64,000 nt of DNA from Gracilaria domingensis (taxonomy: Eukaryota; Rhodophyta; Florideophyceae; Gracilariales; Gracilariaceae). A program made the translations under genes and the position numbers. Position 1 is the stretch's first letter. The number at the start of each line of letters is the position of its first letter. The notes under the pieces are model-generated. The model saw only the letters and a list, made by a program, of their open reading frames with translations, was not told the origin of the DNA and did no database searches. Positions 1,153 through 46,499 of this stretch are shown one piece after another. The DNA is taken from the NCBI GenBank assembly GCA_022539475.1, contig VCMS01000114.1, positions 62,001 to 126,000 of the forward strand. The letters are read 5' to 3'.

Positions 1153-3233
1153 CACAGCATTGACAACGTGGGTCGGAAACTCCCGCACCGCGATGAAACA
1201 GCATCAGGTAGTGCGAGCCTCTGGTACCACCATGTACATGTGGTTGATCTAACCAGCAAATCCATAGACTCGGGCCTATTTCCAACTTGTCTCCCACTTG
1301 CTTCCAGCATGTGTCACATCACACAGGCCCCCACGAGCCAGAGTAGACGGTGGGAATGATTATCTTCTTCGACTGGATAAAGCACCTCCGGACATCACTC
1401 GCACTGTTAGGTATGTTCATCCCCCACCAGTTGATGGCTTCCAGCGCTCACCCAGAGAGGAAAGCCCTCTTTCCCATAGGGCCATTCAAAGTTCCGGGGT
1501 TGCCAGTATTCCTTCTCTTCCGTATCGTACAAGCACCCCACTGAAGTCGGTGTGCAGCGTCTGGCGGCTTGCCTTTCTCGTCGTCGCCCAGAAATCGACC
1601 ACTCCAGTTTTTCGGAGTGTGACATCCTGCAAAGCTTCCTTCTTCGCCCCTGTGCCCAAATAGAGACGTCCCAAACGCCCTGCAGCAATTGTAACCATTC
1701 GACATCAAGTAAGACGCGACCATTTTAAACCACTGAGCTCCTCATTTCCTCCGGCTTCTCCAACCGTAACCCCAACGTGTCGACATCACTCTCCCCGCAA
1801 ATGGTCCACTCCGCTACCGGTACTTCCATCTTTATCATCGTTTGATTATTTTGAAACGACGACTATGCTGGTTCCTCTCCTTTCGATATCCGGCATCGCT
1901 CCATACTCATAATCTCCGAAGAAGTCCACCAACTTCCCCGACACATCCTCGCTGAACTCACCCGACCCGGCGCGCCCCGAACTTCTTCCACTCCTCCCAT
2001 TTAGGGACACCATTATCCGTCGCAGAACCATCAACACGCAATATACTTTCTGCCTTAAGCATGCAGCTTGCATTCGGGCGAAGAACATTTGCCCAAAATT
2101 CGGTCAAGCTCCCTGGATGTCGCAGGAAGCTCAACGCCGACAGCACCGTCTCTTCATCATCCGCATGAATCTGGCCGGGTCGAGTCGGGGATCACCTGCA
2201 TAACGAGAGAAGTCTCAGGCGCGCCCGTACAGAGCGATGGTTCAGCTTGCAGCGTGCCAAAAGAACAAAGATGGTGACATCTCTGAGAATTCGAGACACT
2301 TAGCAGCTGCCGACTCTATGTCCCTTCGGCGACGTGAATTGAGCTCTGAGTCAGGGGTCCTTGTGCTCAATTACGTTTCTTCCCTTGCCATTCCTCCCGC
2401 GATCTCAGCCCTGGGCATAAAAAACAGCACCAGATGAGAGATGGTTCGGTGGCCATCATATGGTCACACTCGAACAAGTCGCGTGCTCCTCATATTCGGA
2501 AGAGCTGTTCAGGTAACTCCGTCATCAAAATGACCCCGAACCTGTCTCTTGCTGATCGTTGGCGCAGCATCTTTCTCGACGGGTGAAACGCCCGTAGAAC
2601 TGTCGAACAGGAACGAAGCTATCGTCATAGTCCACACGCAGAAAATAGCAGAACTGCCTCGCGTTCGTGCATTCGCTCCTAAGCTCGCGACTGCCACGAA
2701 AGCTGAACCCTTAATCGGATCGTTCCTCTCAGCACATGTTAATAATTAGTTGAGACATTCAGGTCATCCGTGTCATGCTGGATATAGCAGAAGCTAGATC
2801 TCATGCTGTTGTGTGAAAGGTCTTCTCCGTTTCTTTTCCTCGGCGGATGCCCCGCTGTTCTTCTTCAGAGCTTCCAGAACTTCTATGGCACCGAACCGTC
2901 GATTTCGGGCCGTGCCAATTTCCCTATAACTCACCATGCGGCGCCCGGTTCTCGTGCAGCTTCTTCGCGGCTCCCGCTCTTCAAATGGGCAGATGTTCAG
3001 GCAGCAGCAGCGGGAGTCCTCCTCTTCGTCACGGAACTGCTTCACTGGTGCGGGGGGCGGAATTTACCTTGAGACATCGTCCGCAATCGATTTCTTGAAC
3101 GGAAGTCGTGGCAGTTCTAATTGACTCGTCCTGCTCCGAACACGTCGCGGCAATGTGGTTGACAAGTTACAACCTTGTCCCAAAAGAAAACTGATACACA
3201 GTTGCGTTGTTGTCGGGTCTTCAAAGTCACTAA
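1153..3233. other. No confident gene; possibly decayed continuation of the ParB-like gene
   Basis: Short open stretches occur on the minus strand (around 1448-1723, 1846-2088 and 2794-3045), but no domain was recognised and no frame stays open. Because the ParB-like gene reads leftward into this stretch and an acidic repeat tail lies beyond it at 811-1152, part of it may be the rest of one long decayed gene. That is inference only. Several small plus-strand ORFs are most likely chance. Confidence 0.3.
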
Positions 3234-5077
3234 TCATTCGATGGGGCAGAAAGACTGACTTCGCGTTTCAGGAACAGCTTCCATGGACTCTTCCTCGTTC
3301 AGTTCATTCCTCACTGCTCTAGCCGCGCGGATACAGAGAGACTGCTCTATCAATAAAAGAACCCTCGACCTCCTCAAAGCTTTCCCATTGCTTTTGTCTT
3401 CCGTCCGATTGCCCTTCAATAGAAACCATCTGAAGACAACAAGAATGAAGAAAAACTCCTCGGCATCCAAAACATATAGCGGAGTATGGGACCATGATGT
3501 GTTGAGACCTATGTCAACTCAAGTCTCACACATATCCTCGAAATGGGCCAGCATTCCCTCACGAGACATGAGTTGCAGGGCGACATTGGCATATCTCAGG
3601 TACTGACGCTCTTGCACAGTCCCAATCAGTTGGCTCTCCTTCAACACTTCTGTCACTTCTGCAGGATCCACGTCTGCCGGCGTCACCCCCTCAACATCTT
3701 CAATTAGAATGGCGACCACACTAACTATAGAGTGTATCTTGTCTGCAAACATCATCCTTCGCATGGTACTCGTCGACTCATTGAGGTACGAAGCAACACA
3801 TAACAATTCCTTCATCCCAATGGGCCTCCCATCTCTTCGTATCAGCAGATTGCAACGCCAAAACTTGGCTAATCGCTTCCACTTGGTGCACCAGTCGCTG
3901 CCAAATATTGTATAGCTTTCAGACGATGCAAACCATCTACAATGAAGCACTTCTTCGTTAGGCGTCCCTTGTCGTATCCCTCTCTCCCGTAGTAGCATCT
4001 TGTAAGGCCACCACTGGAGAACCCATCGACTGCAATATCCCCCGCTCCTCCATACTCTTCACAAGGGCTTCAACGTGGCGTCTACTTACTCCACGGAGTA
4101 AATTGGGCGGAGTGTCCACCAGAGTGATGTCAACAGTAACACAACCATCCGGTAGTAATTGAGGTTCACCTTTGGTACCTTCTGACGAATTCGTCTGTAC
4201 GTCTTGCTCCGAGTAGGTGTCCCTTGTGTTCCAGACCGCTCGCCAGAAACACTTGAACGTGCCATTCTTGCGGACAGAACACAACGTCATCGTCCTGCTG
4301 CTCCGCAGTTTCTGGTGCAGTTTGGGGTACAGATGGACCAGCTCCTTGCGCGGATTGCGCATCCGCGTCTGGAAGGGGACCTTTCATGATCTTATCTCCT
4401 CCTCTTGCACAGCCGTCCCGTGCTGAACCGTCTGTTTCGACGCAGAAGATCCCCTTGTGTCGACGGTCTGATTAATCGCAGGAGAAGCCCTTTTCGACGC
4501 AGTGGGCTTCGTAGCGGAGGTAGACTCTGTTTGACCTGTCCGCTTCGTAGCTGGGGATACTCTCGTCTCCATAGACCGCTTCGTAACAGACGACGGACCT
4601 GCCCGCGGAGGTGGTACTGATGCGCTACCTCTCGGTGTTGATGAACTTCGAATTGGCTCCGTGCGGTTGTCGGCGTCATCACCTCACTCATAGCGCTCAC
4701 CGTTCCTCGCTTCGACGCCGGAATGCTGGCTGCCACCGGTTCCATCATTTTCTCATCCCAAGGAGCGGCCGTCCGGAGATCCTGGATATATTGTGGAAGA
4801 TCCAGGCCCTCCGCCCGGTAAGGGTAGAACGTCTGACCGCTTCGACTGATGAGAATATTATGAACCACCACAAGACCTGGGTCCAATTGCTTCCGTTCAA
4901 CTCGCGGCGTAGAACACTTTCAATTCCATGCAACAAAGCTTCCCCGACTATCACCTTTCCTTCATTCTCAATATCCATCTGCAGAGAAACCCGCATTCCA
5001 CCTTGCAATGATCGAGTGCTCCTCCGAGAGCGAGGAGTCACGCTTTGCGTACGCTTTCGAACACGAGTTGGCTTCAT
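3234..5077 (-). pseudogene. ParB-like domain protein, frameshifted
   Basis: Starts at an ATG just downstream of a leftward TATA-type promoter. The N-terminal part is basic (many Arg/Lys/Ser). It is followed by a Ser/Thr/Lys-rich linker around 4384-4570, and then a segment resembling the ParB/sulfiredoxin-like nuclease fold: VTVDITLVDTPPNLLRGVS, then LVKSMEERGILQSMG (4020-4140). After a frameshift near 3960 comes FIVDGLHRLKAIQYLAATG (about 3890-3950), which matches the family signature DGxHRxxA. Further frameshifts lie near 4880, 4580 and 4280, and an in-frame TGA occurs at about 3519. The ParB fold binds or cuts DNA and can hydrolyse CTP in bacterial relatives; here only the fold can be suggested. 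It is divergent from the methyltransferase-SET gene and appears to share the control region. Confidence 0.5.
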
Positions 5078-5144
5078 GTTGAACAGCTATTGCAGTGAAA
5101 GGTGTATATCAACAATACGCTCGCTCTGGACGATACAAGAACGG

Positions 5145-5340: not shown

Positions 5341-6245
5341 ATAGTAGTCAAGAGTACACTCATTCACTTCCATGTACAGCCTACTCCCGCAAATACACGT
5401 GGACAGCGGTGCCAACGTACCGGCGGCCGGGTGTAGCGAAATCACTGCGCGGGGCGTGTTTTGAGAGGTCCCGGGAAGGCACCGGAATGTGGCCAGAACG
5501 TGCCCGCGGGCGTGGGGGGTCGGTCGTGTTAGGGTAGGTACCCTAACACGACCGGACCCCCCCGCCCGCGGGCATAAAATCGCACATTTTTCAAAAAATC
5601 GCCCAAAACGTGCCCGCGGGCGGGGGGGTCCAGTCGTGTTAGGGTGGGTACCCTAACACGACCGACCCCCCCCCCGCCCGCGGGCACGTTTTGGACGATT
5701 TTTTGGGACCCTCCGGAGACCTCCCAAAACACTCCTCCCGGCACTTCCTGTACCCACTGCGTCACCTTAGTGCACCATCCCGTCATCTACACCCTCCAGA
5801 CACTCCCTAATTTCCGAGATGGTGCACTGAGGTGACCATCTCGTCTTCTCCACCATCCAGACACTCCCTAATTTCCGGGATGGTGCACTGAGGTGACGCA
5901 GTGGGTACAGGAAGTGCCGGGAGGAGTGTTTTGGGAGATCTCCGGAGGGTGTCAAAAAATCGTCCAAAACGTGCCCGCGGGCGGGGGGGGGGGGGGTCGG
6001 TCGTGTTAGGGTACCTACCCTAACACGACTGGACCCCCACGCCCGCGGGCACGTTTTGGACGATTTTTTGAAAAATGTGCGATTTTATGCCCGCGGGCGG
6101 GGGGTTCCGGTCGTGTTAGGGTACCTACCCTAACACGACCGACCCCTCTCGCCCGCGGGCACGTTCTGGCTACATTCCGGCGCCTTCCGGAGACCTCCCA
6201 AAACACTCCTCCCGCCACTTCCGGCAGTGATTTCGCTGCACACGC
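5341..6245. repeat. Palindrome array between divergent genes
   Basis: Four GC-rich palindromes of the form CGTGTTAGGGTAGGTACCCTAACACG, each framed by CGCCCGCGGGC blocks and separated by AT-rich spacers with CGCACATTTTTCAAAAAATCG. The two halves of the array (5455-5780 and 5890-6235) face each other around a ~110-bp centre with repeated GGTGCACTGAGGTGACG text. The left edge (5341-5440) recurs in inverted orientation at 38300-38405. The array lies between the leftward ParB-like promoter and the rightward methyltransferase promoter, so it may be a bidirectional control region or a binding or replication site. Confidence 0.85.
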
Positions 6246-6548: not shown

Positions 6549-9500
6549 ATGGATTCCACCGATGTTGGAGAGGAGATACATCCTATCGACATGAGTGCTC
6601 CGCCTCCGGCGTTCCATGCATATGTCAGACTTTTTTTCGTTCTTCGCGATGCTTTGGAAAACAGCGATGGAGGCCCTGATCGGCCACGGGACGTGGGGTT
6701 TAGAGGGTTAATAGAGTTCTGCGCCGAGAACTATAAGGATATTCCGGAGGCAAGGAAGATGTTTGAGGAGGCCACTAACTCCAAGAACCTGCAGAACTTG
6801 ACACTGCAACAGCTGCGAAAGAGTGTTGTGAATAACAAACCTGTGGAACAACGATATCTTGTAACGAAGCTTCTTGACAAGAAGGACGGGGATGAGGACC
6901 AGAGTCTCCGCGATTTTTTCCTTCTCTCTATGGATATGGGTATATACCTACCGGTGCGATGCCTGGTTGGTTATTTCATGACCAGGAGAAAGCAGGTTCT
7001 GAAGACGACAGTGTTCATCCCACCAACAGCTGTGAACCCATTTGAGGTCGTTATATACTTATCATACCTCGGCCACATAATGGGAGAGAACGACAACATC
7101 CGAATGATGAAGAAGAAACAACCGAAAAAGAAACGAAAAGTGAACCATGCACCATCTGTGTACATACCCACTTTTACGTCGTTCTCCAAAGACAACTGTG
7201 ATCGACTGGGATTCGCTATCAGTGAGGTCGTATGGGCATGGAGTTGTTTTGCGGCCATCTTGGATACACGAACGTTCAGCACATGGTGAAACCATACATT
7301 TACATGAATATGCAGACGTTGAAGTATACAGCGCCAGAGACACGGGAGTCCGGTTATGCCCCGCCGAGCCAGAGTACTCGATTCAACACAAAGGATGTGC
7401 CACAGAGCAGTACTAGTGGATCGGTGGAGACCTTGAGTGATGAATGCGATACAAACCTGCGAATACTGGCTAAGGAGTTTTTGACAGACCTCGAAACCAT
7501 ATGCACCCACGATAGCCTCTATAGCTTACGGGCTGATCAGATGAGGAACTGGATAGAGTTTTCGGAGATACGGATGGATACCGTATCTAGCTCTGACTCC
7601 GGTGAGTTGCCTGCTCGATTTCAGAAGTTTTCGGAGTTGCTATGGAAACCGATACAGGATATGCGTCATGCGGCAGGGTTCCATGTCGGCATTCACGCGA
7701 AACCTGATATTGAACTGACGAAAACCCCTAAAACTTCCGGTAATGCCGAACCTTCTTCGACCAAGTCTGCCCCATCCCCACCTCGTCGAGAGTATATGAA
7801 CCTCGTGAGCTCCGATAGCGACGAGTTCGAGAAGCCGGTGAATCTTGCGGAGCATGAATCTCGGGTTGCCGGGTACAACATCCAAAAGACTGGTATTGAG
7901 CCGCCCATGAAGGGGATATCCAGTCTCCTTCGAATGAATATGGACAAGGTGTGGAAGGGGATGAGAAAGTCACACTTTGTAGCGTACAACTGTGACATGA
8001 CGGACTTGAGGCACACACACGAAACGTTTGTGAATCAGAGTGAGATTTTATGGGGTGAGGCACAGCTTGTCCTAACAGACCCTCCCTTTAACACTCGAAG
8101 GAAGAGGAACAAACGGAATAGTGGTCACGATGTCTTCAGTGAGGAAGACATGATCCGTACGGCTGACTTAATAAGTTCCGCGCTTCGGTCAGGTGGGCAC
8201 TTCATTATATTCTGTGCCATGGCACAGTTTCATGTGTGGCACAGGATACTTTCGGAAACGGCGAGTACGAAAGATGAAGCTGGAAGCGAAGGTAAACCAG
8301 AACTCATGCCTTCGTTTAAAGTGGATGCAAATCCACTGGTGTTCATCCGGGATCGCAGTAATGTTGGAGGGAATCTACGGAAGTTTGGGATACAGCCCGT
8401 AACGGAGTACGCCGTTCATGGGGTGAAGCGTGGATTGCGACCATCGGAGGAAGCCAGTCTTACTCCATTTGAGGAGAACAATTTCATTCCTTCTACTTTC
8501 CCGGCTAACAGGAATGTAATTGACCGGGTTCCATAACCGAGAGCGGGGGAGTGGTTGACATGGAAGGTACATGAGCCAGGTAGTTCAGTACCAGGTGGGC
8601 AGTACATAAGACCGGAGCAGAAGTCCAGGTAGTTGATGAAGGAGTTGATATGTCGCTTCACAAGACCGGGTGATCTTGTCATGGACATGTTCGCGGGAAC
8701 TTTTTCTACGGGTATGGCGTGCCTATCGCTGACAAAGCATAGGACGTTCTTGGGGTGCGAGAAGAATAGGCCATGCTTCAGCCATGCGAAGCACCATCTA
8801 ACGACTCTTATGGCCGAAGTTATTCGCGGGGGGAAGAATGACATCCTGGTTGAACAGGAGGTGGTGGATGCGGCTTCAACGACCTATGAACGGGTTCCAC
8901 ATCGGGACCGAGGTCGGCTTGAATGGGAGGCTCCATTTGGTTACCCCCAGTACCAAGTGATGCCTGGACATATTACTCAGTTCCTAGGAAGATACTGGAA
9001 GGACTGGGACTTTGTCGAGAAGTGTGGACAGCGTACTGTAGATCTTTGGGAGGGGAAGTACCGAGGAGCTCTGAATCTTATGGATATGCATATGCTGTTG
9101 ACTGTTGAAGCCAATCGCTATCGCTTACATGTAGCATCTTCTAAGATTCGACATCCCCGTGGTGGTATGGGGGTGTTCACGGAACATAAGATATTGGCTG
9201 GGGAAACTATCTGTCATTTCTATGGAACTTTGGTATACACGGATCTGACGAACCGGAAGGAAAGACACTTAACGTATGGAAGTGGCTGTCTCGGAGCAGC
9301 TCCAGTGCGGTACAAGTTGTTTTCTATGATGGTCACTGTGACTGGTTCGGAGTTTCTGCACCTGAGTAACAGACCAGGACAGGCTCAGATAGGAAGGAGA
9401 GCGAAGTCTACATTGTCCCGGCGCCTTTTTGTATCGGGGGCTACATTAACGACGTCGGATATCATGCCGGGGATCCTGATTTATCAGAGCTCCGGTCAAA

Positions 9501-9684
9501 CAGGACTCGAAGTGCCAATGTGCAGGTGGTGGAAGCGAAGTCCGTGATACAGTTTAAGTCAGACCTTTCTAACTATGCTCTACTTCGTTGTAGAGCAGTA
9601 AGAGATATTGAGAGGGGCGAAGAGTTGTATTTCAACTACGGAGAGCAGTACGTCTGGGACTGGGCTCTGACATTGGAGCAATAG
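6549..9684 (+). pseudogene. DNA methyltransferase-SET domain fusion, copy A
   Basis: Compared with copy B (27513-30650), this is one coding unit of about 1045 codons. Residues 1 to about 300 match no family I know and contain PKKKRKV (7122-7142), a classic monopartite nuclear localisation signal. A Ser/Pro linker follows. Methyltransferase motif IV is DPPFN (8078-8092) and the SAM-binding motif I is DMFAG with a following TG (8684-8710). Motif IV before motif I is the beta-class order of amino-methyltransferases, and DPPF favours N6-adenine. From about 9127 to 9684 comes a SET-like domain: VASSKIRHPRGGMGVF at its start, and AVRDIERGEELYFNYGEQY at its end. The usual NHSC motif is not recognisable. 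Damage: a 1-nt loss near 7254, stops at about 8534 and 8630, and a 1-nt loss near 9388. Substrates are inferred, not shown. Confidence 0.8.
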
Positions 9685-9932
9685 ATGAGTTCAGTACCGA
9701 ATAGAAAGTAAATATGCTTGTGAGTATTGCAGTTGCCTGCAATACGCGTTGTTGTACATGTACACTGGAGCTCTTCATCTGTAACGGCGATATTTGCGAC
9801 CCATTGGGCACCTCAAATTCCTAAAAAGCAGGAACTGCGAAGTCTCCCGGAATATCTGAACCATGCACCCCCCCCCACCCCCTCCCCCCCTCCCCAACAA
9901 TTTCGTTTCATTACCCTGTTTATCTCCACAAC

Positions 9933-11019
9933 ATGGGTATAACGCCGAGAAAGCGAAATAGTACGCAGCCGAACAAGAGTGGACAGAAGAAGAGAAGAGC
10001 ATCGGATGATACGAATCAGGCTACAAGAACCGCACTTCCTAAACGGAAGTCGTCCTCGACGAAGGAGAGAGTCAGTGGGCGTCCTTCTACAGGACTCTCT
10101 CGCCCATCTCGCAGCGGAGCGTCTTCCGGGATTGCGTCAAGAATTCGTGGATCAGCGAACGATGTCGTGCCGTCAACTGCCGATAATGCAAATAGTGCAT
10201 CTGTCTCTGCTCCTCAAGAAGATGAGATAACTCGGCCCAGCGGGTCAGGACAGGAGGCCATGACAACTGGAACTGAAGAGGTTCGTATGACACCAAAACC
10301 TTCATGTCCCCGGCCGATATCGAAGACCGGAGCTACTGGGGCGCGGGTTACGCCGCCCAATGGATCTGGACAACAAGGGACAATGACGAAAAGTCGTGAG
10401 AGCCCTAGTATATTAAGATCGTCACGTCCATCCCTGTCTTCTAGAACTGGGGCCGCTATGAATCGTATTATGCCTCGCAATGGGTCCGGACAAGGGAGAA
10501 AGACAATAAGAAATCGAGAGACAACTGATAGACAAGTTACTCCTCGACCTTCCCCTCTTTCCAGAACGGGGGCCGTTGTAGCTCGTACGAGGCCCAATTC
10601 ATCTGATATACCATGCCATGGAGGAGGACAGACACGGGAGTTGGAGCTCGGAGCCGTGCCAAGGGTGGACACAGAATGCCTGCAGCCTCTCGTGTCTAAG
10701 GCTATGGCACATGAGGATAGTTTCGATAACGAAATAACACCGAATCCTGCGGCATTACCGGGCCTGTCGCCGAAGAGGCTAGGGAAATACCGGAAGATAT
10801 CCACACTGGTGTGAAATCAACCTCAATGAACAGACGTGATCTTTTAAATGAACTGAATTGCTTGAAAGAAAAGGTTAAGACGCTACAAGAGGACTTGATG
10901 GTTCGGGGAATTCTAGTGAAGGTCGCCCAAGAGCAGAGTACGGCTTTGAAAAAGAGGCTTGAAGAGAAGGATATAGTCATTGAAGGGCTAAGAGGGGCAC
11001 TGAAACAGGAGGGAGATAG
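9933..11019 (+). pseudogene. ORF3, 5' part (copy A, split by element I)
   Basis: Starts at ATG 9933, about 250 bp after the methyltransferase-SET stop and behind a C-rich tract at 9867-9898. The first ~280 residues are basic and low in complexity (Ser/Thr/Arg/Pro, with repeated GSGQ-type units). From about 10840 a coiled coil follows (LLNELNCLKEKV... and ALKKRLEEKD). A 1-nt loss near 10761 breaks the frame. The gene stops being readable at 11019, where element I is inserted, and its remainder lies at 20234-21544. A DNA-binding or scaffold role for the element is a guess from composition; no known domain was recognised. Confidence 0.7.
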
Positions 11020-11490
11020 CGTCTGTGTTCTGCAAAGTGGAATATAGTCTGTTCGCTTTGGAAACTAAGCTAGTTTTTGGGCTTTTTGGGGCGCGCGAGG
11101 GGGAGGCAGTGGCTGGCACTCAAAAAATTAAGAAATTTTGGAATATTAAATTCCATCTCGTGCAGTCTAATTCTTGGGTCTCCTAGTTTTCGTAAAGGTT
11201 CTATTTCGCCGCACCGCCCCATCCACTCTTTTCCGCGACCCTCTCTCTAATCTGCGCTTGTGCTAGTTTGCATTTCCATTTTTCCCGAGTTGCGATGCAA
11301 ATCGCAACGCATCTCACCTCAATTATCCCACCATTCCTTCCCATTCCGCACCGTCCCCACTCTTCACCTATATCTCGCCCATCACGCGTTCGTATCCTCC
11401 CTCTCCGTCTCCCGGAAAGTTATCCTGTAGAGGTACGTGTGAGAACCGTCCCCAATCTCGTGCACCCGCCTCGCCCCAAAACGGCCGCAT
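11020..11490. repeat. L-end sequence of element I
   Basis: Homologous to 45635-45960 and, inverted, to 43950-44450. Contains the terminal CGTCTGTG, then GCTAGTTTTTGGGC, and an AT-rich AATTTTGGAATATTAAATTCC stretch. Read leftward, 11440-11490 encodes a short peptide (FWGEAG) like one that can be read past the end of the coiled-coil gene at 43078-43982, suggesting that gene once occupied this end. Confidence 0.75.
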
Positions 11491-11643
11491 GCCGCGGAGG
11501 CGTCTCGCGAGGCTTCCTCCAGCTGACTATTGGCGATGAGCTGATCGCATATGACTGCATCGTGGCTGCAGTGCGCCTGCAGCTCATTTCTTTTTTGTAA
11601 ACATTTTCACGACACACTTTATCAATTTCCCGCGCTCGCTTAA

Positions 11644-12330
<687 letters not shown>

Positions 12331-12339
12331 TCGCATGAC

Positions 12340-14515
12340 GCGACGCCGGCAGCAAAGCCCCGTGCCGCCGCAGAGCGCTCAAACGGGGCACCATGCGCGC
12401 GCGCGGCGCCGCCCGGCGCGCACCGCCAACGGGCATGCTATGCGTCTCACTCCGCTGCTGCCGCCGCCATGGCCAACTCACGTGCCATGAGCGCGCCGTA
12501 CCGCGTTCCCTCTCCGGGTCCTTGCCCTCCCTGTAGCGCTGCAGCTGTACTGCAAACGCGCGTGAGCCCAGCCGGCCACGCCCGACTCGCTGCCAGAAGC
12601 CTCGGCGGCGCCGGCCGTGGCCGGCGGTGGTGCCGGTAAACGTCACGCTGCTGGGGCTGCCAGAGGCGCCGGTTTTGGCTGCACGCGCGCTGGCGCGCTC
12701 GGTAGTGGCGTTGCTGGCCCAGCTGCCGCCTCTGGAGGCGCGGCTGCGATCGGCGCTGCTGGTAGACGAGCGCGCTGCCATGCCCACGTGTGATCAGCGC
12801 GCCGCCAACCCCCTGGACTTGGCACGGCGTGCAGCGGCGCTACGTTACGGTGCGCGTCTGGGCTGTGCCCGACCCTAGTTTAGTCTCCGACGCGCTAACG
12901 GCTTCCGCCGCGCGCCAACTGCACGCGGGCGGTTGTGTGGCAGCGTCGCCGACTTCTCCGACGCGCTGGCTCGCGCCGTGCCGCGCTTCGTCAGGCCAAG
13001 TGCAGCGACGTTGCCGCCGCTGCTGGCCGTGCTGTCGGCACTGCCACGTCACCGCGCCGGGCGTCTCTTTCTCGCGGCGACCGCGCTGGACGGGCAGCAC
13101 TGCGTGCGCGACTCGGCGTTGTTCGCCAAGCGCGGCGGCGCCTGGTACGTGGCGACTGCCGCCACCAATGCCAACCCGGGCCTCGGCATGCCGCCACGCG
13201 TGCGCACGTTCGTGAGCGCCTAACTGGACCCGTGGCTGCGCGCGCCGCCTATGATGCTGCGACGCTGGTGGCGACGAGTGTGGCAGAGCGCCGCAACTGG
13301 ACAGCATCCAGCTTCGTTCCAGCGCGGGCGTTCGTGGCACTGCCAGGCAGTGCGGCGCTCGGCAGTGAGCCGCTGTCGCCGTCGGCGCGCGATTATACGC
13401 CAATGCGGCTGGCCCTGCTGCTGTGCGCGAGCGCGCTGCAGCGCGACAACGACGCGCCCACAGTGAGCAGCGTGGCCATCTTCAAGCTGCCGTTGCTGTT
13501 CAACCTCATGCCGGTGGAACTCATCGCAGACGTTGACACGCTAAGCATGTTGCTGTACAAGATGCTCACTGACGTGCTCTCTGCCGTGACGCTTCTGATC
13601 AAGGGCTTCGAGGTGCTGCTGGTGGGCGCGCAGCCTTCGTAGGCCGCCATCACGCGCGTCATCGGCGCCGACGTGCACACCCGCACTGCGCGCGCCGACA
13701 AGGCCGCCGTGATGGTTGTGGCGATGTGCGAGCCGCAGCGCTCGTTTCTCATCGCCGCCGTTTGCCGTCGCGCTCGCGTTCGTGGCCGGCGGCGTGCTCG
13801 CCGAGTTTGGCGCCATGTGCTGACGAGCACGAAACAGCGGCCGCGCAACGCGCAGCGCTGCCTGATGCGTATCGCGGCGAGGGGCGCGCACTTCGCAGCC
13901 GGGCGTGCGTGCGCCAAGGGCGAGCGATGCGCGTGCAGCTGTTGCATGAGTTAATACACCATATTGAGCGCGTAAACGAGCTTCGCCGTTTTCGCCGCAG
14001 TTGTTGCTTGAGTCTGATCTCACTTTGTCACCTTCTACTACGGGCCACGTCCGCGCAATTTCTGCGCGCGCCTCGCTCTCAGCCGCCACGAGGCGCGCGG
14101 TGGCTCAGCCTCGTCACCAAAAGGCGCGCCTTCGTCACTACTTCGCGCCTCCAAAGCGAACCAGCTCCGCTACCGCGCCTTTGAGCGCGGTAATAGAACG
14201 CATCGCCGCCGCGCGGAATGAGCTCGTCGCCATGACGCGCGCGCTGCACACAAGCGCGGTCGCCGCCGCGCTACTCCTCGCACTGTGCGCGGCGCCCGAA
14301 TCGTGAGGTTTCCGGTCTCCACTCCATGATAGCGAAGGGCGCTTGGTCACGCACGGTGCACATAAACTGGTGCTGATTCACGTAGCATGATGACGCGCTC
14401 ACAGCAGCCAAGTCTTGCACGCATGGGCCATCCAGGATGAGCTGGCACGCAAACGTCGTTGAACGACGCACCGCTTGCAGTAATGGCGCCGCGCGCTCCG
14501 TGGGCGGCGCGGAGG
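12340..14515. other. GC-rich captured DNA, unidentified coding fragments
   Basis: This stretch is much richer in G and C than the flanking transposon. Plus-strand open stretches with coding-like composition lie at about 12627-12878, 12933-13223 and 13220-13642 (for example IFKLPLLFNLMPVELIADVD near 13490). They look like pieces of one or two broken host genes, but I recognise no family. Long ORFs on the other strand here are most likely shadows caused by the lack of stop codons in GC-rich DNA. Confidence 0.5.
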
Positions 14516-15240
14516 TTTGCTGGCGATGTGTTGTTGGAGACGGGTGTCATCAGACATGTCGTAATGTCATTCTGTCGTATTGGCAGCGCGCGAGATCAAG
14601 TTGTGTTGGGGTCGCTACCCTAACACAACTCAACCACGCTGCCCGCGGGCACGTTACGTTTTGGCTGGATATGCGTGCGGTGTGTGTTTTGGGAGGTCTG
14701 TGGACGCTACCGGAATGAGGCGAAAACGAGCCCGCGGGCATGAAATCGCACATTTTTGAAAAAATCGGCCAAAACGTGCCCGCGGGCGGGGGGGTCCGTT
14801 CGTGTTAGGGTAGGTACCCTAACACGAACGGACCCGCCCGCCCGAGGGCATAAAAAAGCACATTTTTTAAAAAACCGGCCAAAACGTGTCCGCGGGCGGG
14901 GGGGTCCGTTCGTGTTAGGGTAGGTACCCTAACACGAACGGACCCGCCCGCCCGAGGGCATAAAAAAGCACATTTTTTAAAAAACCGGCCAAAACGTGTC
15001 CGCGGGCGGGGGGGTCCGTTCGTGTTAGGGTAGGTACCCTAACACGAACGGACCCCCCGCCCGAGGGCATAAAAAAGCACATTTTTTAAAAAACCGGCCA
15101 AAACGTGCCCGCGGACGGGGGGCTGCGGTTGTGTTAGGGTAGCCACCCTAACACAACCGATCCCTCCCACGCCGACGGGCACGTTCTGGTCACATTTTAG
15201 CACTATGCCGAGACCTCCCAAAACCCCTTCCTCAACACTT
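14515..15240. repeat. Palindrome array of element I, with three ~116-bp tandem units
   Basis: Five palindromes of the GTGTTAGGGTAGGTACCCTAACAC type. Units starting near 14768, 14884 and 15000 are direct repeats of about 116 bp that include the palindrome and a CATAAAAAAGCACATTTTTTAAAAAACC spacer. The outer palindromes at 14604 and 15126 have diverged. The block from about 14515 onward is homologous to 54045-54625 in element IV. Confidence 0.85.
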
Positions 15241-15739
15241 CTTGCACTCATTACCATGCACCCGCGCGCGAACACGTTGGCACCGCTGTCTACGTGGATT
15301 GGCGGGATGGCAAAAAGCTGTACATTAATTAGAGTATATCTTGAGTATTAGGAGCGCTTCAAAACGCATGAATGGAGAGCGCTACCATTGTTCGCATAAA
15401 TCTACGTCCACCAAAACCCTTCGCTAGAAGGAACTTTTTGAGGCCATTCTGTAGCGTTTTGATACCTCCCAAAACACAATCGGTTGCATTCCTTGCAACG
15501 ATTTTGTTGCGAGCTCAGTACAGATCTTTTAGAGATAAATCAACTAGTTTTTTCATCCAATTGATGCTCAACCAGTAACATAATACGCGACCTTGTTACA
15601 ATTTGTGTAGTGTCTGACACACTACACTATTTAAACTGATCAAAGTGGCGAAGAGATGTACCACCGAAGCGCGCCAACACCCTCACGCACAAAAGTGGTA
15701 ATGCGCAGGGATGAGATGCATAAAAAAACAGAGTGACGA

Positions 15740-16000
15740 CAGTATGTAGCTACTTAAATACTCGCCACCACCTTTTTCCCGTGAAGATACAAATTCTACC
15801 GAGGATGAAGATAAGGTATTATCTAATAGCATGAGCGCTTCCGCTCTAGCGTTCAATTTATATATCTGAATCTAATTTGTTCGTTGTGACGGTCTGACAA
15901 ACAGCGATGAAGGCCTCCAACGACCATATAATACCGGATTTATAGGGGTAATAGAGCGAGCTCTCTGCGAAACACCATAAATAACTAAATGGAGTCCTGA
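15740..16000 (+). pseudogene. Relic of the methyltransferase-SET N-terminus and its promoter
   Basis: A TATA-like ACTTAAATACTCGCC at about 15748 is followed by sequence that aligns by eye with the first ~200 bp of the coding region at 6549: ATGAGYGCTYCCGCTC, AACAGCGATGAAGGCC and GGATTTATAGGGGTAATAGAG match landmarks there. Stops and indels make it non-coding. The same relic is at 55125-55385 in element IV. It shows that elements I and IV descend from a form that carried the methyltransferase gene next to the array. Confidence 0.65.
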
Positions 16001-16015
16001 TAGGCTAACTACTAC

Positions 16016-16291
16016 ATGATTTTCAGAGGTTTAGAGAACGGGGTTTGTAGCAGCTCTTATATGCTAAATTCATTCAGTATAAAACTCTATGAAACAGAAT
16101 GGCGACGAGAGTCGTCGCAGAGAGCAAAACAGATGGTAGGCATGAAAACCGTTCAGCCCTGTGTGCTTGAGCTGGTAGCACATGATTATCGTTCCAATTT
16201 TGAAATCGTATCGCTTCACCTTCCGTTAACAAAGCCTGTCACCAACAATACAAGAGAAGACATTAATCGACGTGTTGCGGTGATGCCGTAA
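16016..16291 (+). CDS. Small ORF conserved in elements I and IV, unknown
   Basis: A 91-codon frame whose counterpart in element IV (55357-55659) is also open, with matching text such as SIKLYETEWRR and KPVTNNTREDINRR. It lies where ORF3's C-terminus would be expected, convergent with the transposase, but I cannot align it to ORF3. It may be a remnant of an element gene rather than an active one. Confidence 0.35.
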   Translation: MIFRGLENGVCSSSYMLNSFSIKLYETEWRRESSQRAKQMVGMKTVQPCVLELVAHDYRSNFEIVSLHLPLTKPVTNNTREDINRRVAVMP

Positions 16292-16299
16292 AAGGCTGC

Positions 16300-18547
16300 C
16301 AATGGTGTTAGTTTTTCTTCTGTTGAGAGTCGAGATAGAACCTCAGACTCCCAGGTCTAGAGCTATGAATTCCTGCCCACGACTTTGTCGAAGAGCGTTA
16401 AAGGCTTCAATCTGCCACCGAAGGGACGAAATAGAGTTTTCATTACATCATGCGCCACGATTGCACCTATAACTAGTCCAAGCGACGCCCGAGTACTGAG
16501 AGAAAACTGTTTTGATTGAAGCCCTGTCCTGCGCTCCCTATCAGATTTCAAAGAATTCCTTTACGAAAAAAAAACCATGTCAAGGTTTTTGTATGCTTTG
16601 GCCTCCATCATTCAAAGGAGATCTGCCTTTGTGAAGGTTCCATTCAGTGACCTGCCTTTCTTCGACGTGGACAAATCTATATGTAAACTTTTGGCAAAAA
16701 AGTTGCATTGCATTGGGGATAGATTTGCGTTTGTAAAGTTGCTGATTTGAGTACGTATCGTTCGAAATAAACGTGACGTGGATGATTCTATTGCAGTGAG
16801 TAGCGTCTCTGACTAGAGGTTTTCGATTTCTGGAGTATTAATCAGCTTCAATTTGTCTGGATGCAAGTTGCGTAACTGTTCGAAGAGAGCTCTCCTTGTT
16901 CCCAACAGACTGCATAGAAACAAACTCTGGATCAATCCTACCGTCAAGGGGGTTTCGATGAACGACGGAATAAGAGATATGTAATCAGAACGCTTGAGAG
17001 TACCGCCTGAGATATACTCTCCCTCGCAAGACATATACTTCTTCCTGCCTCGTCTTTCTTTGCATATTCTAGAATAACTGAGTATGTATCTCTAACGCTT
17101 TTGGTTTGGTCTTGAGAGGGTCCAGTGATTGAAGTAAGAATACTACTTCATAAAGATGAGGGAGGGGCCTCGAATCTATGACAGGAGCTCCCCGTTTTGG
17201 TCCCGTGAAGAGTTAACAGAATGTCTTTAGCCTCAAAAGTATCCGCACGACAACTTGTAGAGGATGGCACACTCGACTTAGTTTGTCTTCGCCGATGAAC
17301 TGAAAACTTTCTGCGTGAGATTTAGAATGGGCTCCAGGACTTGACGAAGAGATTCTTGAAGGATTTGCATCCTGGACTCGCGTAGAGACTTGCTAGAAAC
17401 GAATGGCATTGCGTCTGCTTCAGATACGGAAACCTCGATCAGTGTGGTAGGGAAGTATGCCACTACTGTGAGGTCATCACGGATGCACTTACGGCGTAGC
17501 TCGTCGGAGAAGTTGGGAAATATGAGCTGAAGAGGATAGGCGGTAAATGATGTTTGCTTTAGAGTTGTTGAAGACTTATCGGTGTATACCTGCAGAAGAC
17601 CTACGAAAGATTCACTGTAACCTATTTCTTGGGAGTACCACACTATTCTACTATCCAACGAGCCCATGACCATTTCCTTAAGTTTTGAGGTGGCGTCTCT
17701 TGCGAGAGAGCCGGACATGGGTTGAGATATTTTCGTGGAGTGGGTCTGAGGTATAGGGTGAAAGAATGTGTTTTCGTTGTTAGCCAACTGGAGCTGTTTC
17801 AAAAGTGTCTGAACGGGGTCTCTCGTGTAGAGGGTGGCGCTGAACGTACATCCTTCTGGCGAGACAGTTCTTCGATTGAAACCGTCCTTTGAGGCGTATC
17901 GTTCGAAAATGGCGTTCTTCAGTTCTGTACAGCGCTTAGAACTTGTTATGGTCTCGTTGAATCGCTTTTGCGAGAATCGCGGGTCCCGAAGTAGCCCAAT
18001 TAGCTCGTCTGCCTCACGATGACCAAGGTTGGAAGCTACTGAAGCCAGACAAACCGTGAGATAATCCATATGAAAATCACCGAGGGCCTCCTCAGAAGGC
18101 AGTGGGCGGGAACTGCTTCCGTGTTCTTGCTCTAACGACGCGGGACCCGGGGAAGGAGAAACACAATGCGAAGTGTCCCGAATGGGAGGGGGCGCACGGA
18201 GTGGGGTCAACGATGTCCTCGGACACCGGAGGCTCGGGAAGGCGACAAGGGGCAGTGACCGTTTCGGAAGATGCGGCCGCGTGCGCGGAAAGCTTGAGAC
18301 GTTTGCTTCTCCGAATGGGCCGCCTATTGTCGTCTTCCAGCGCTGCTTTCAGACGAAACGGGCAATGGTTGACATGCTGTTGAAGAGATAAGACTCCTCG
18401 GCGAGTAACGAAGGGGCACCCACGCTTCTTATGTGTACAGTAGTAGACCATGGGAAGAAAAAATGAACGAAAAACGACGACAAAGACTTCAAGGGAAGGG
18501 CGTCCGAAGGGAGAAGGAGGTCGAGCGACAGTCAAGATTGACGTCAT
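16300..18547 (-). pseudogene. CACTA/Plavaka-like transposase, element I
   Basis: An ATG at 18547 opens the N-terminus with a Cys-X6-Cys-X13-His-X3-Cys zinc-binding motif (from YYCTHKKRGC, around 18440-18370). A frameshift near 18190 moves the frame into a well-preserved stretch of 310 codons ending at 17278. Beyond that the C-terminal half can be followed only as decayed text down to about 16300. For example, ISLIPSFIETPLTVG near 16980 corresponds to ISLIPSFLETSVSLG in element III. The protein would cut and join element ends; this copy cannot be functional. Confidence 0.75.
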
Positions 18548-18599
18548 GCTGAGAACGGAGAATATATTTTGAGTTTAAATCGCTTGCTTTCGTTCAAAA

Positions 18600-19810
18600 A
18601 GGAACGTAGGTACACGTCGACCTCAACACAAGAGTGTACTTCTCGTATTATCTACCACTTGTTATAAACCTGTGGTTCTCCAACATTGTAAGCTGTACAC
18701 CTGTCCAATCTCGCACAGAAAAATAAGTCTCTTCCCTCCGCCGCCGCCGCCGCCGCCCCTCCGACGTCCGACCTTCCGTTACCGTCGTGATTCGTGCCAT
18801 CCACATCCTCGCGTTATACTCCGCTCCGTCCTTCTCTTTTCCTCCCTCTACTTTATGGAGGCTCCTTAAAGTAGAGGGCGGAAAAAAGTAGGACGGAGTC
18901 ATCCGTATCTCACGGATGTATTCCGTGCAGTCTATTCGTACGTTCTTCCATATCCTTCCACGTATCTTTGCTCTAAACTAACCAATCCTCACCACGTTTC
19001 TTCGCGCTCTGCGACATGCAAACGGCAGGAAATAAGCTAATCACCCCCAACTTCTTCTATTTGCTCAAGATATAGAACGAGTTGAAGGGTGAAAACGGGA
19101 ACCTGGTAACCCAAAGCGACGACTGTAAGTACGCGACGAATGGTTCATTTCGTTGCGCTATAGGCTCTAGTTTCGCCTCTTGCGCTACTTTTCAAAAGTA
19201 GCGCAAGACGCGAGAAGCTAGAGCCTATAGCGCAACAAAACAAGTTGGTTCCTTGGCGATCTTGGATCTCCGACTGTTCGGGATAGACGATTCTGGTACT
19301 TGGTTGGGACATAGGCTGCTCTTTCGTTTATCGCATCTTGCGGTATGTTTGCTGCATGGGCATTCTTGGTGCCCTTGCTTGTGAGTTCTCGCTTCGACAC
19401 CTTTTGCGCTTTACGATGATGGTGGGCTGGTAATCTAACCGATCCCTTTCCTTCTTCTTCTTCCTTTTGCGAGTTCCTAGGTCCCTCGACTTTTCTAGCG
19501 CAATGTTTCTGTTTTGTTTTATCAATGGTACGTTCCATCGCATTTCAAATGTATCCAACGGATCTTTGACTAACTTATGGATACTTTCTGCTTGCGTATA
19601 GAGGTAAACGAATTTTGATGCGGACGTAGCTCACGAGTTTCAGGTGCAGGTTCCTTAAGTAGGGAACCATGCATGTGGGCATGGTTCCCTACATGAGGAA
19701 CGGAGAGGATGAGGCGCTTCGCGCCTCATCCTCTCGGAGTGCGTATGTGTTCTACCGATACTGCACTTCGGTGGAGGTGCCCTCTGCGGCATCTGCCGCA
19801 GATTGCGCCT
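18600..19810. repeat. Nested hairpins upstream of the element I transposase
   Basis: Long inverted repeats: 18843-18879 (CTACTTTA...TAAAGTAG), 19155-19240 (arms GCGCTATAGGCTCTAG / CTAGAGCCTATAGCGC around an inner GCGCTACTTTTC/GAAAAGTAGCGC hairpin), 19649-19702 (GTAGGGAACCATGC / GCATGGTTCCCTAC), 19703-19739 (GAGAGGATGAGGCGC / GCGCCTCATCCTCTC) and 19780-19804 (CTCTGCGG/CCGCAGA). The last three recur in all four elements; others recur in some. Confidence 0.8.
19218..19538 (-). CDS. Small basic ORF upstream of the transposase (element I copy)
   Basis: A frame of about 106 codons rich in Lys, Arg, Glu and Gln, with conserved text INERAAYVPTKYQNRLSR. Versions occur at 24835-25484 (twice), 33393-33713 and 58530-58931. 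In elements III and IV the first half reads as RKRKKKKERDR, which is nuclear-signal-like, through a frame difference. It may be a small DNA-binding protein or an upstream exon of the transposase. I found no clear splice sites, and it overlaps hairpins, so the coding claim is weak. Confidence 0.35.
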   Translation of the reverse strand: MERTIDKTKQKHCARKVEGPRNSQKEEEEGKGSVRLPAHHHRKAQKVSKRELTSKGTKNAHAANIPQDAINERAAYVPTKYQNRLSRTVGDPRSPRNQLVLLRYRL

Positions 19811-20049
19811 ACATTGGCTTCATCATGGGGAAATGGTATATGTAATATAGCGAAGTAGTGGTTAGCAAAAACGGTCGATAGAAGAATAGATACGAATAAA
19901 ACGGTATGATTTCATAATGGACATCATCTGTACTAGCAACAGTATTCCATGCGTTGCAGGGTATTATTCCGCAGAAGGTATCGTGTAATGTGCACCTTAA
20001 TGGAAACTGAACCTAGACTTCGCGAAATACCGTTCAGGTAGCCCTCGAC

Positions 20050-20233
20050 TAAAGAACTAGCACGAGTGGAAAACCCACCAGTATTTACTGCACAGCGATT
20101 CTGGACGACCCAAGCAATTATCTTCAAATTTTGAAATAATTGATCTCGATATTTTTTCAAAAAATTTACTGGACGACCCTTACCACTTTCTGGACGACCC
20201 TCGCCAAAAACTAGCATCTGCAAGAGACAGACG
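20050..20233. repeat. R-end of element I with repeated CTGGACGACCC
   Basis: Next to the R terminus the motif CTGGACGAC(CC) occurs three times (about 20100, 20170 and 20190), likely transposase-binding repeats. An open leftward frame (19933-20217) overlaps this stretch and is open in elements I, II and III, but has a stop in IV. Confidence 0.7.
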
Positions 20234-21544
20234 AGGAGTACACGTGCTGGTGAACCTGGGCAGACAGGTCGAAAGAAGCATAAAATTGAGGTGTGCGACG
20301 AGTTTCGAGGGGTTGCTCGAGCAGTGTATCACAACATGCTGACGTGGGCAAGCAGAGAAACAAGTGAGCTATGGCTCGAAGGTGAGTCGCTAACCCGAAA
20401 TTGGGGTAACCGTGCCGAGAAGGTGGAAGACGCAACTGAGAGTGGGGAAGGGCTTATTGAGCCGGAGGAAGGTGGTTCATACATGGTTCCTAAAAACCCC
20501 GTGGAGCTCTTGGGCAGTTTTGGCATGTTCACACCGTCGGTAGAGGGGGGGGCCAGATGCTTTGCTGAAGAAAATGGTTGAAAGCGAGTTGAAGGAGTTG
20601 AGCTGGGAAGGTATTAGAAAAGCATCTCTTACCGACAGGTGTATACTGGAACTTTGTGCAGATATGTGCCTTAGGCAGAGAATGCGGCAGACCATGAGTG
20701 ACGTCGTGGGCGTTCGTAAGAGAAATACGAGGGATAAACTATTTCTGATCCTGGGGTACGATCTGATTTGGAGAAGAACAAAGCTGGTAGAAGAGAATGC
20801 GACGAACTCACAATGCAGTTGAAGGAAGCGCAGGAGAACATACTGCGTCTTGACGAAAATGGTGTACCGAACACTTCATGGTGGAGAAAAGCCCCATTTG
20901 TTCGTCTAAAGTACTCCAATGCGGACAATGTGGAGGATATGCTGACGGAAGATCAAGACTTGTTCTTCCGAAACCGTGTCGGGGTACAAGTACTGAAAGC
21001 GTTTATTGGGTATGATGTGGAAGACAAGGATACGGGCACCTTTTTAGATGGCACAATACTGTTGCTCGCACGTTTGGACGCTTGGGTGTTGACGGTTGTG
21101 AGCCTTCTAAGTACGGATGTGTCAAGGGGTGGCCAGAGACAGAAACTGTTTACAAAGAAGTTTGCCCAACTGCTACCTCTGTGTTTAAAGAATGTTCTGG
21201 GGGATGTTAGGCAACGTGTCTTGAGGACGAATTCCAGCGATTTTCATAATTTTGGAACGACAACGGAAGATTGGACTAAGGTTCTTGGGAATGACATGAG
21301 AGAGGCTACATTTGGATATCGAATGCCGTCGAACGGAAGACTTTACCTCACTGTGAAAGAACAATTTTTTATTGACAGTGTGAGCAGAAGATTGGGGTCT
21401 ATTACCGATTGTTTCGTTGGTGAATGCGAGGAAGGGGATATAGAGTTCAAGGAAATGGACATGAACGGTTTCGGAAGTAGCACAGGATCACAAGAAAAGG
21501 CACCACAAGGTGAACATGTAGAGGATGGAGCCCTTAATGTTTAA
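20234..21544 (+). pseudogene. ORF3, 3' part (copy A)
   Basis: Continuation of ORF3 after element I, in frame once the AG duplication is counted once. Text runs from STRAGEPGQTGRKKHKIE to a frameshift at the G run near 20550, then LLKKMVESELKELSWEGIRK, another shift near 20755, and an open 258-codon stretch to the stop at 21544 (DIEFKEMDMNGFGSSTG near the end). The C-terminal third is the best conserved part and recurs at 31945-32496 and, inverted, at 37642-37863. No known domain was recognised. The full protein would be about 800 residues. It converges on the element II transposase. Confidence 0.7.
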
Positions 21545-21740
21545 GGCTGTACAAGATCAACGTGCTCAGTTGGTCCTTCATCTGAATCATGATAGAATGA
21601 TTGATGTAGAATCGGTGTTGAAACCATTGAAGTGGAGGACAAAAAGGTAGAGCAGGGTAGTTTGATCGAACAACATGGACAGTTCCCTGTAGTGCAGAAG
21701 CCGGAACCATCCCGTACCAAGGAGTTAACTCTACGATCAA

Positions 21741-26029: not shown

Positions 26030-26179
26030 TTTACTGCACAGCGATTCTGGACGACCCAAGCAATTATCTCCAAATTTTGAAATAATTGATCTCGATATTT
26101 TTTCAAAAAATTTACTGGACGACCCTTGCCAGTTTCTGGACGACCCTCGCCAAAAACTAGCATCTGCAAGAGACAGACG
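26030..26179. repeat. R-end of element II
   Basis: Terminal CAAGAGACAGACG ends at 26179, with CTGGACGACC repeats inside. The outside base pair is TA. No matching L end is in the window, so a target duplication cannot be tested. Confidence 0.75.
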
Positions 26180-45960: not shown

Positions 45961-45989
45961 CCATCATGGCTCCCCACCTCAGAATTCTA

Positions 45990-46490: not shown

Positions 46491-46499
46491 GCTCAAAGG

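What the first reader, a model, noticed from the sequence alone, without database searches (positions are those of the whole stretch)
6549..9684. Transposon-encoded fusion of an amino-type DNA methyltransferase and a SET domain
Seen: DPPFN followed ~200 codons later by DMFAG (beta-class order), then a SET-like C-terminus ending GEELYFNYG, in one ~1045-codon unit with a PKKKRKV nuclear signal, present twice in the window with the same neighbours. Established: DPPF-type beta-class enzymes methylate exocyclic amino groups (mostly N6-adenine) and SET domains methylate protein lysines. Inference: one polypeptide could write both a DNA and a histone mark, perhaps to protect, silence or time the element. 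I know of no named family with this domain order.
Basis: partly seen in the sequence, partly recalled or inferred. Interest (0 to 1): 0.93.

Follow-up and report, generated by a model that had tools for sequence, protein, structure and literature searches.

The report
Transposon gene fusing DNA-methylase and SET
A very large jumping gene of a red alga carries one protein that joins a bacterial-type DNA-methylating enzyme to a histone-methylating (SET) domain, a combination we found in no paper searched, and its conservation suggests that the jumping gene writes its own chemical marks on DNA and chromatin.

Summary
Both window copies (6549-9681, 27513-30647) are broken by frameshifts, copy A also by a stop. 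Elsewhere in this 77.9-Mb red-algal genome the unit is a single 1,045-codon frame: 9 loci show the frame in capped lists, and 3 of 8 fetched copies were read intact. Pfam finds N6_N4_Mtase (3.9e-15) and SET (1.8e-7), both above cut-off. Four further families, 27-44% identical, keep the order and both domains, and both evolve slowly: the fusion is old and selected.

The gene sits in a roughly 22.6-kb DNA transposon with a convergent Plavaka transposase and short terminal inverted repeats; one related insertion shows a 2-bp target duplication against an empty site. No C5 DNA methyltransferase was detected in the host, and CpG is not depleted.

Most likely it is a nuclear writer acting for the element, by anti-silencing or licensing; activity, target base and target lysine are unproved. 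SET motif NHxC carries D instead of H in 4 of 5 families. Transposons with a SET gene or a DNA-modifying enzyme are known; I found no report of this fusion.

The parts
6549..9681 (+). MTase-SET gene, copy A (about 98.9% identical at aligned bases to intact copy L004; two frameshifts and one in-frame stop)
8063..8776 (+). N6_N4_Mtase (PF01555) domain of copy A
   Evidence: tblastn of the P0001 domain; Pfam on the two open pieces, one above and one below cut-off
9164..9642 (+). SET (PF00856) domain of copy A, split by a frameshift
   Evidence: tblastn; Pfam on the intact copy; no Pfam SET match on the broken piece
7122..7142 (+). PKKKRKV, SV40-type nuclear localisation motif (motif recalled)
27513..30647 (+). 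MTase-SET gene, copy B (about 96% identical at aligned bases to L004; frame broken); MTase 29029-29742, SET about 30130-30608
9870..11017 (+). ORF2 (823-aa protein of unknown function), first part, element A
20234..21541 (+). ORF2, second part, displaced by the nested element
21537..24342 (-). Plavaka-type transposase of element A, convergent with MTase-SET; part of the C-terminal half is missing
   Evidence: tblastn; Pfam PF18759 1.9e-17 on the C296 copy
26139..26179 (+). 3' terminus of element A (...TGCAAGAGACAGACG)
1460..5086 (-). degraded copy of the 1,155-aa ORF of the element (weak ParB-like match only, E 0.01)
5447..6215 (.). foldback inverted repeat just upstream of MTase-SET (arms 5447-5681 and 5981-6215, 94%)
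11020..20233 (.). nested related element, 2-bp target duplication AG, inserted in ORF2 of element A
34343..37585 (+). second Plavaka transposase copy, in what I read as an inverted, internally deleted element (32717-44450)
45635..59567 (+). third related element with the same termini and 2-bp target duplication GT

Best explanation
It is the epigenetic-writer gene of a family of large Plavaka-type DNA transposons in a red alga. The 1,045-aa protein has an unannotated N-terminal region with an NLS motif, a beta-class amino-methyltransferase (probably N6-adenine) and a C-terminal SET lysine-methyltransferase domain. SHOWN (sequence): the fusion, its conservation in five families, its place beside a convergent Plavaka transposase in three of them, and slow evolution of both domains. 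INFERRED: after expression the protein enters the nucleus, marks element DNA through the amino-MTase and methylates a lysine on local chromatin through SET, so that the element stays expressed or becomes competent for excision (anti-silencing or licensing), as proposed for transposon-borne TET/JBP genes. The anatomy is near certain (about 0.95); two active domains about 0.55; an anti-silencing or licensing role rather than self-silencing about 0.4.
For: Both domains above Pfam cut-offs in 5 of 5 families. Catalytic motifs kept: (D/E)PP(F/Y), RPEQ, D-x-(F/Y)-x-GT; SET GxG, YGT, IN, a following N and the C-terminal Tyr. Profile against PDB: the SET region's leading hits are SET lysine methyltransferases (EZH2 1.1e-5, KMT2C/MLL3 2.9e-4, SETD8 7.2e-4); the MTase region hits DpnA 2.4e-16 and CcrM 2.7e-12. 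F2 against F2b: MTase 73% identity, dN 0.165, dS saturated; SET 71%, dN/dS 0.12; N-terminal region 58%, dN/dS 0.145. 76 of 150 MTase hits have a SET hit 360-440 bp downstream on the same strand (both lists capped at 150); 32 of 150 have a convergent Plavaka hit within 12 kb, against 1 same-strand pair. Precise 2-bp target duplication against an empty site. No PF00145 match in the genome while 10 of 14 controls rang; CpG observed/expected 1.03 in the window, 0.93 in the element, 0.88 in copy A of the gene.
Against: No activity, expression or methylation data. The His of the SET NHxC motif is Asp in 4 of 5 families, so SET may have altered activity or only bind. The SET score of F2b only just passes (23.1 bits against 22.4). 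In the PDB profile search the E-values are for whole sequences; the best single stretch printed has i-Evalue 0.15. hhalign of the SET region against five host SETs gives E 3.5e-4 but probability only 37% (shallow alignments). F4 has EPPY, and one decayed F2b copy reads NPPY. PvuII-type N4-cytosine enzymes also match the MTase profile (2.8e-4 and weaker), so adenine is not settled. F4 showed no Plavaka match in the three ORFs of the 5.5 kb fetched downstream. Of five elements with both ends seen, C34, C164 and 32717-44450 show no matching 2-bp flanks. Recent copies show dN/dS near 1 in several regions. Self-silencing is not excluded.
Confidence: 0.5

Rival explanations
1. DNA-write with protein-bind: the amino-MTase is active but the SET domain has lost lysine methylation and serves as a binding or dimerising module for chromatin or the element's other proteins.
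For: NHxC reads ND in 4 of 5 families and the stretch to the following Asn is enlarged; the protein ends soon after the catalytic Tyr, without a Cys-rich post-SET tail.
Against: Invariant GxG, YG, Asn, Asn and Tyr; SET evolves as slowly as the MTase between F2 and F2b; F4 keeps INH.
Confidence: 0.25
2. Self-restraint or timing: the protein methylates the element to repress or time its own transposase, as Dam methylation does for some bacterial elements (recalled), so that few jumps occur per cycle.
For: Same conserved co-occurrence with the transposase; the foldback repeat next to the gene could be a target (inference).
Against: No methylation data; many near-identical copies (40 of 40 scored, of 306 candidates, at 95-100%) point to recent multiplication, which fits restraint poorly.
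Confidence: 0.25
3. Passenger cargo: the gene is one of several carried genes (HAD hydrolases, a Rossmann-like ORF) and serves no step of transposition.
For: The element carries other apparent cargo, and sibling elements carry fragments resembling host genes.
Against: Same position and orientation relative to the transposase in loci known by sequence to be F1, F2 and F2b, the same ORF2 partner in F3, slow evolution across families.
Confidence: 0.12
4. Artefact: two adjacent genes or chance motifs joined by the reader, or assembly contamination.
For: Both window copies are frame-broken, and Pfam finds no SET in their open pieces.
Against: 9 loci with the 1,055-codon frame, five families, the 40 scored copies lie on 38 contigs of a genome with red-algal genes; the prokaryote relatives found are 23-48% identical over the matched stretches.
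Confidence: 0.02

Closest known systems
Plavaka DNA transposons, including TET/JBP-carrying fungal Plavaka (PMC12730594, 2025; passages and section 4 read)
   Same: PF18759 transposase, 2-bp target duplication, carries a DNA-modification enzyme beside the transposase
   Different: Modifier is an amino-MTase fused to SET, not a TET/JBP dioxygenase; red alga rather than fungus; termini CGTCTGT..ACAGACG rather than those printed for PlavakaA/B; about 22.6 kb
HarbingerS and MuDR elements of Phytophthora with a SET gene (cited in PMC12730594; originals not seen)
   Same: Transposon-borne SET histone-methyltransferase gene
   Different: Other transposase class; no DNA-methyltransferase fusion mentioned in the passage read
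Giant Plavaka repeats of Amoebidium (PMC11244446, section 7 and passages read)
   Same: [quoted passage not shown] their recombinase genes had database hits in red algae and dinoflagellates
   Different: Described cargo is tyrosine recombinases; no MTase-SET in the text read
Bdelloid rotifer N4CMT (PMC8885841, passages read, abstract included in part)
   Same: PF01555 amino-MTase of bacterial type joined to a chromatin domain, in a eukaryote without C5 methyltransferases
   Different: A host gene, SPPY motif, chromodomain (reader) instead of SET (writer), not carried by a transposon
C5-methyltransferases acquired by eukaryotic retrotransposons (de Mendoza 2018; seen only as a reference entry)
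   Same: Mobile element with its own DNA methyltransferase
   Different: C5 enzyme, retrotransposon; a SET domain is not in the title and the paper was not read
Bacterial and phage beta-class adenine MTases (CcrM, DpnA, phrog_67)
   Same: Domain order and motifs; phrog_67 1.9e-23, DpnA and CcrM in PDB
   Different: No SET or comparable N-terminal region in those families (recalled); low identity

Membership tests
Beta-class amino DNA methyltransferase (PF01555) | Profile match above curated cut-off | tested here: met
   5 of 5 families, 53.7-73 bits against 26.7
Beta-class amino DNA methyltransferase (PF01555) | Catalytic (D/N/S)PP(Y/F/W) N-terminal to the SAM-binding FxG motif | tested here: met
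   DPPF/DPPY before D-x-(F/Y)-x-GT in 4 of 5 families, 202 codons apart in P0001; EPPY in F4
Beta-class amino DNA methyltransferase (PF01555) | Methylates an exocyclic amino group in DNA | not testable with these tools
   needs enzyme assay or long-read signal
SET-domain lysine methyltransferase (PF00856) | Profile match above curated cut-off | tested here: met
   5 of 5 families, 23.1-32 bits against 22.4; SET proteins lead the PDB profile hits
SET-domain lysine methyltransferase (PF00856) | GxG, Asn of NHxC, catalytic C-terminal Tyr | tested here: met
   invariant in 5 of 5
SET-domain lysine methyltransferase (PF00856) | His of NHxC | tested here: not met
   Asp in 4 of 5, His only in F4
SET-domain lysine methyltransferase (PF00856) | SET fold by structure | not testable with these tools
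   structure prediction switched off
Plavaka DNA transposon | Plavaka transposase PF18759 | tested here: met
   1.9e-17; window copy 8.1e-8
Plavaka DNA transposon | 2 (or 3) bp target duplication | tested here: met
   AG against an empty site and GT at a second element; of five elements with both ends seen, the other three (C34, C164, 32717-44450) show no matching flanks
Plavaka DNA transposon | Termini TGT..ACA or CATCA..TGATG | tested here: inconclusive
   termini are CGTCTGT..ACAGACG; TGT..ACA lies 4 bases inside
TET/JBP-carrying transposon | TET/JBP dioxygenase gene | tested here: inconclusive
   no PF12851 hit, but no control genome rang either
Bdelloid N4CMT | C-terminal chromodomain and SPPY | tested here: not met
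   SET in place of chromodomain; DPPF/DPPY/EPPY
HarbingerS SET transposon | Harbinger-type transposase | tested here: not met
   the one Pfam family matched by the transposase is Plavaka (E up to 1)

The most novel reading that the evidence does not exclude
A selfish element supplies what may be the only DNA-methylation system of its host: in a red alga without detectable C5 methyltransferase, transposon copies encode a single enzyme that writes an exocyclic-amine DNA mark and a lysine mark together, a coupled DNA-plus-histone writer that makes its own chromatin state.
Probability: 0.3. Interest if true: 0.92.

Novelty: new variant of a known kind. Interest (0 to 1): 0.75.

Why it matters
DNA and histone methylation are normally coupled through separate proteins that read each other's marks (general knowledge). 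One polypeptide with both writers, kept by selection in five transposon-associated families, would be a natural single-protein coupling, and a further case of elements carrying chromatin modifiers. It also makes a question directly testable: whether this alga carries 6mA or 4mC, where, and whether transposons put it there. Long-read data from any strain of it could answer that.

Tried and rejected
Considered and rejected: chance motifs (profiles above cut-off in five families); two separate genes (9 loci with the uninterrupted frame); contamination (40 scored copies on 38 contigs; red-algal genes); a recent bacterial transfer (61 confirmed relatives of 168 candidate stretches, 23-48% identical).

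Led nowhere: viral contigs gave 3 weak MTase loci of 38 stretches for the whole protein and 0 of 48 for the SET region; prokaryote genomes gave 0 of 62 with the whole-protein alignment. The N-terminal region has no Pfam match in the two families tested and only a non-significant bromodomain-like PDB match (E 0.11). The 1,155-aa ORF has only a phrog ParB-like match at E 0.01, none in Pfam (pieces, one chance match under cut-off) or PDB. ORF2 has no match in Pfam, only chance-level ones elsewhere. MT-A70 and TET searches found nothing, but no control rang, so absence is not shown. The literature searches listed no paper that I recognised as reporting an amino-MTase-SET fusion; four papers were opened at passages or single sections (PMC8885841, PMC11244446, PMC12730594, PMC12502185), the rest seen as listings. 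Only open-licence PMC papers are held, and of 203 papers matching only 20 were listed.

Rows dropped: the SET comparisons that run across frame breaks (L004 with window copy B; L032 with L037) are not used; P0004 (L006), which ends 9 codons early, was left out of the family alignment. The MTase, SET and Plavaka lists show 150, 150 and 123 scored of 328, 311 and 672 candidates, so counts are lower bounds.

Full report
What was checked. The window is G000:C114:62001-126000, part of a 77.9-Mb, 680-contig genome. The host is a red alga: 14 of 14 scored phycobilisome-linker domain matches are above cut-off, ten of them on contigs other than C680, and the ApcE on C680, which I take for the plastid contig, scores 1,250 bits to the LCM of PDB 5y6p (that this is Griffithsia is recalled). 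No tool names the species.

The observation. The second copy is also broken. A DNA search of the genome gave 40 matches (40 scored of 306 candidates), each 95-100% identical over at least 3,117 of the 3,136 bases. Of the 8 copies returned as loci, three (L004, L005, L008) hold one frame of 1,055 codons from stop to stop, 1,045 from the first ATG. In the two domain lists the 1,055-codon frame appears at 9 loci: C47, C164, C171, C237, C257, C328, C419, C465, C597. Pfam on the open pieces of the window copies finds the MTase but no SET, since the SET part is split there.

The domains. Pfam gives N6_N4_Mtase at 516-753 (E 3.9e-15, 56.8 bits, cut-off 26.7) and SET at 883-1042 (E 1.8e-7, 32.0 bits, cut-off 22.4) in P0001, which is numbered with ten codons before the ATG. 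Single-sequence PDB hits are DpnA, CcrM and MboIIA for the first and, weakly (E 0.23), KMT2A for the second. A profile of the SET region from five families finds SET lysine methyltransferases first (EZH2 entries 1.1e-5 for the whole sequence, best single stretch 0.15). A profile of the MTase region finds DpnA at 2.4e-16 and CcrM at 2.7e-12, with N4-cytosine enzymes from 2.8e-4. Against five SET domains of the host itself, hhalign gives E 3.5e-4 but probability 37%, with few sequences on each side.

The fusion is old and selected. A genome search with PF01555 returned 150 matches (150 scored of 328), all above cut-off. Nine loci were fetched; two proved to be the window's family (L039, L040), and the rest fall into further families with the same order: F2 (L032, 1,118 codons; L036, L037), F2b (L033, 1,121; L034), F3 (L038, 634, lacking most of the N-terminus) and F4 (L035). 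Their representatives P0005, P0006, P0008 and P0007 are 33, 31, 44 and 27% identical to P0001, and all four pass both Pfam cut-offs, F2b's SET only just. F2 and F2b are the closest pair (58-73% by region). Key residues of both active sites are shared, with two warnings: the NHxC His is Asp in four of five, and F4 has EPPY. Between F2 and F2b the MTase is 73% identical with dN 0.165 and saturated dS, SET is 71% identical with dN 0.173 and dS 1.44, ratio 0.12, and the N-terminal region has ratio 0.145. Recent copies within a family show ratios near one in several regions, as expected of dead copies.

The element. Comparing copies gives a unit of about 22.6 kb (G000:C34:184904-207547), ending CGTCTGTGTTCTGCA... 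and ...TGCAAGAGACAGACG, a 15-bp terminal inverted repeat with 12 matches. Its gene order is: a 415-codon Rossmann-like ORF (by eye; no Pfam match), two HAD-type ORFs (Hydrolase_3 4.3e-13, and 5.6e-4 just under cut-off), a 1,155-aa ORF on the other strand, a foldback repeat, MTase-SET, ORF2 (823 codons), and a Plavaka transposase on the opposite strand. In the window, a related element (11020-20233) sits in ORF2 of element A; copies C34 and C296 show the empty site, and a 2-bp AG is duplicated. A third element (45635-59567) has GT on both sides. The other three elements with both ends seen (C34, C164, 32717-44450) show no matching flanks, perhaps through rearrangement.

Association in the genome. 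Of 150 MTase hits, 76 have a SET hit downstream on the same strand at 360-440 bp; none of the eight strongest SET genes, presumably host genes, has a listed MTase upstream. Of 150 MTase hits, 32 have a Plavaka hit downstream and convergent within 12 kb, 29 of them at roughly 4.7-5.9 kb, and only one same-strand pair was found; one of the 32 (C22, 10.5 kb) shares its transposase with a nearer MTase. Among loci whose family I know from sequence, F1 (C171, C296, C359) lie at 5.33-5.36 kb, F2 at 5.53 (C12, C22) and 5.74 kb (C281), F2b (C157) at 5.74 kb, measured to the edges of hits. Seen from the transposase, 43 of 123 Plavaka hits have such a convergent MTase or SET hit. F3 is followed by an ORF2 relative (52% identity, 2e-114). 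F4 is followed by three ORFs without a Pfam family above cut-off in the 5.5 kb fetched, and no Plavaka match there; it has three matches, all on contig C382. The lists were capped or partial, so these numbers are lower bounds.

Host context. No C5 DNA methyltransferase domain was found in the genome, while 10 of 14 control genomes rang. CpG is not strongly depleted (observed/expected 1.03 in the window, 0.93 in the element, 0.88 in copy A of the gene, 0.91 in host SET genes). MT-A70 and TET were also not found, but no control rang for either, so this is not evidence. Of the three methyltransferase families searched for (PF01555, PF00145, PF05063), PF01555 alone was detected.

How it probably works. 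The NLS motif, the convergent transposase partner and the slow evolution of both domains point to a nuclear protein acting for the element. I favour a writer that marks element DNA and chromatin so that it stays expressed or can be mobilised. This follows the argument made for TET/JBP in fungal transposons (PMC12730594; passages and section 4 read) and extends the reported presence of SET genes in HarbingerS and MuDR elements (same section). Self-restraint, or a SET domain that only binds, remain open. The base is probably adenine N6, since DPPY/F is typical of such enzymes (recalled; DPPY is given for bacterial N6A enzymes in PMC8885841) and the nearest named solved relatives are adenine enzymes; but sequence alone does not decide, a caution that the bdelloid paper makes explicitly.

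What is known and what is new. Known: Plavaka elements, elements with SET genes, elements with DNA-modifying enzymes, a eukaryotic amino-MTase joined to a chromodomain, giant Plavaka repeats (PMC11244446, section 7). New as far as the searches reach: an amino-MTase and a SET domain in one protein, as a conserved gene of a DNA transposon. I rate it a new variant of a known kind.

Noticed in passing
window 11644-12192 (+), inside nested element 11020-20233: An amine-oxidase/phytoene-desaturase-like fragment (PF01593 9.3e-23; the desaturase name is my reading) beside a 66% G+C stretch (12001-14000) between element termini: likely captured host sequence.
   Followed up: partly
window 50257-51618 (-) and 52802-53392 (+), inside element 45635-59567: Fragments matching a winged-helix domain (PF22977) and DNA polymerase subunit B (PF04042) between transposon termini: apparent host-gene capture by a Plavaka-type element.
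   Followed up: partly
L021 992-2059 (+) and 2118-3074 (-); window 3-575 and 38407-39922: Two related HAD-family hydrolase ORFs carried by the element (PF08282, one above and one just under cut-off; window positions).
   Followed up: no
L011 2614-6078 (-): 1,155-aa element ORF with a weak ParB-like stretch (phrog_3264 E 0.01) and, by eye only, a possible C-terminal dioxygenase-like part; no Pfam match at E up to 1 and no PDB match at E up to 5.
   Followed up: partly
L035 and L044 (contig C382): The most divergent MTase-SET family has three matches, all on one 115-kb contig, each with an open frame of 1,169-1,170 codons, and downstream ORFs unlike those of the Plavaka elements.
   Followed up: partly
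window 5447-6215 and the equivalent place in other copies: A foldback inverted repeat of about 0.7 kb directly upstream of MTase-SET, present in several copies in varying form.
   Followed up: no
window 60230-61093 (-): A fragment matching DDE_Tnp_1_7 (2.8e-7), a different transposon class.
   Followed up: no
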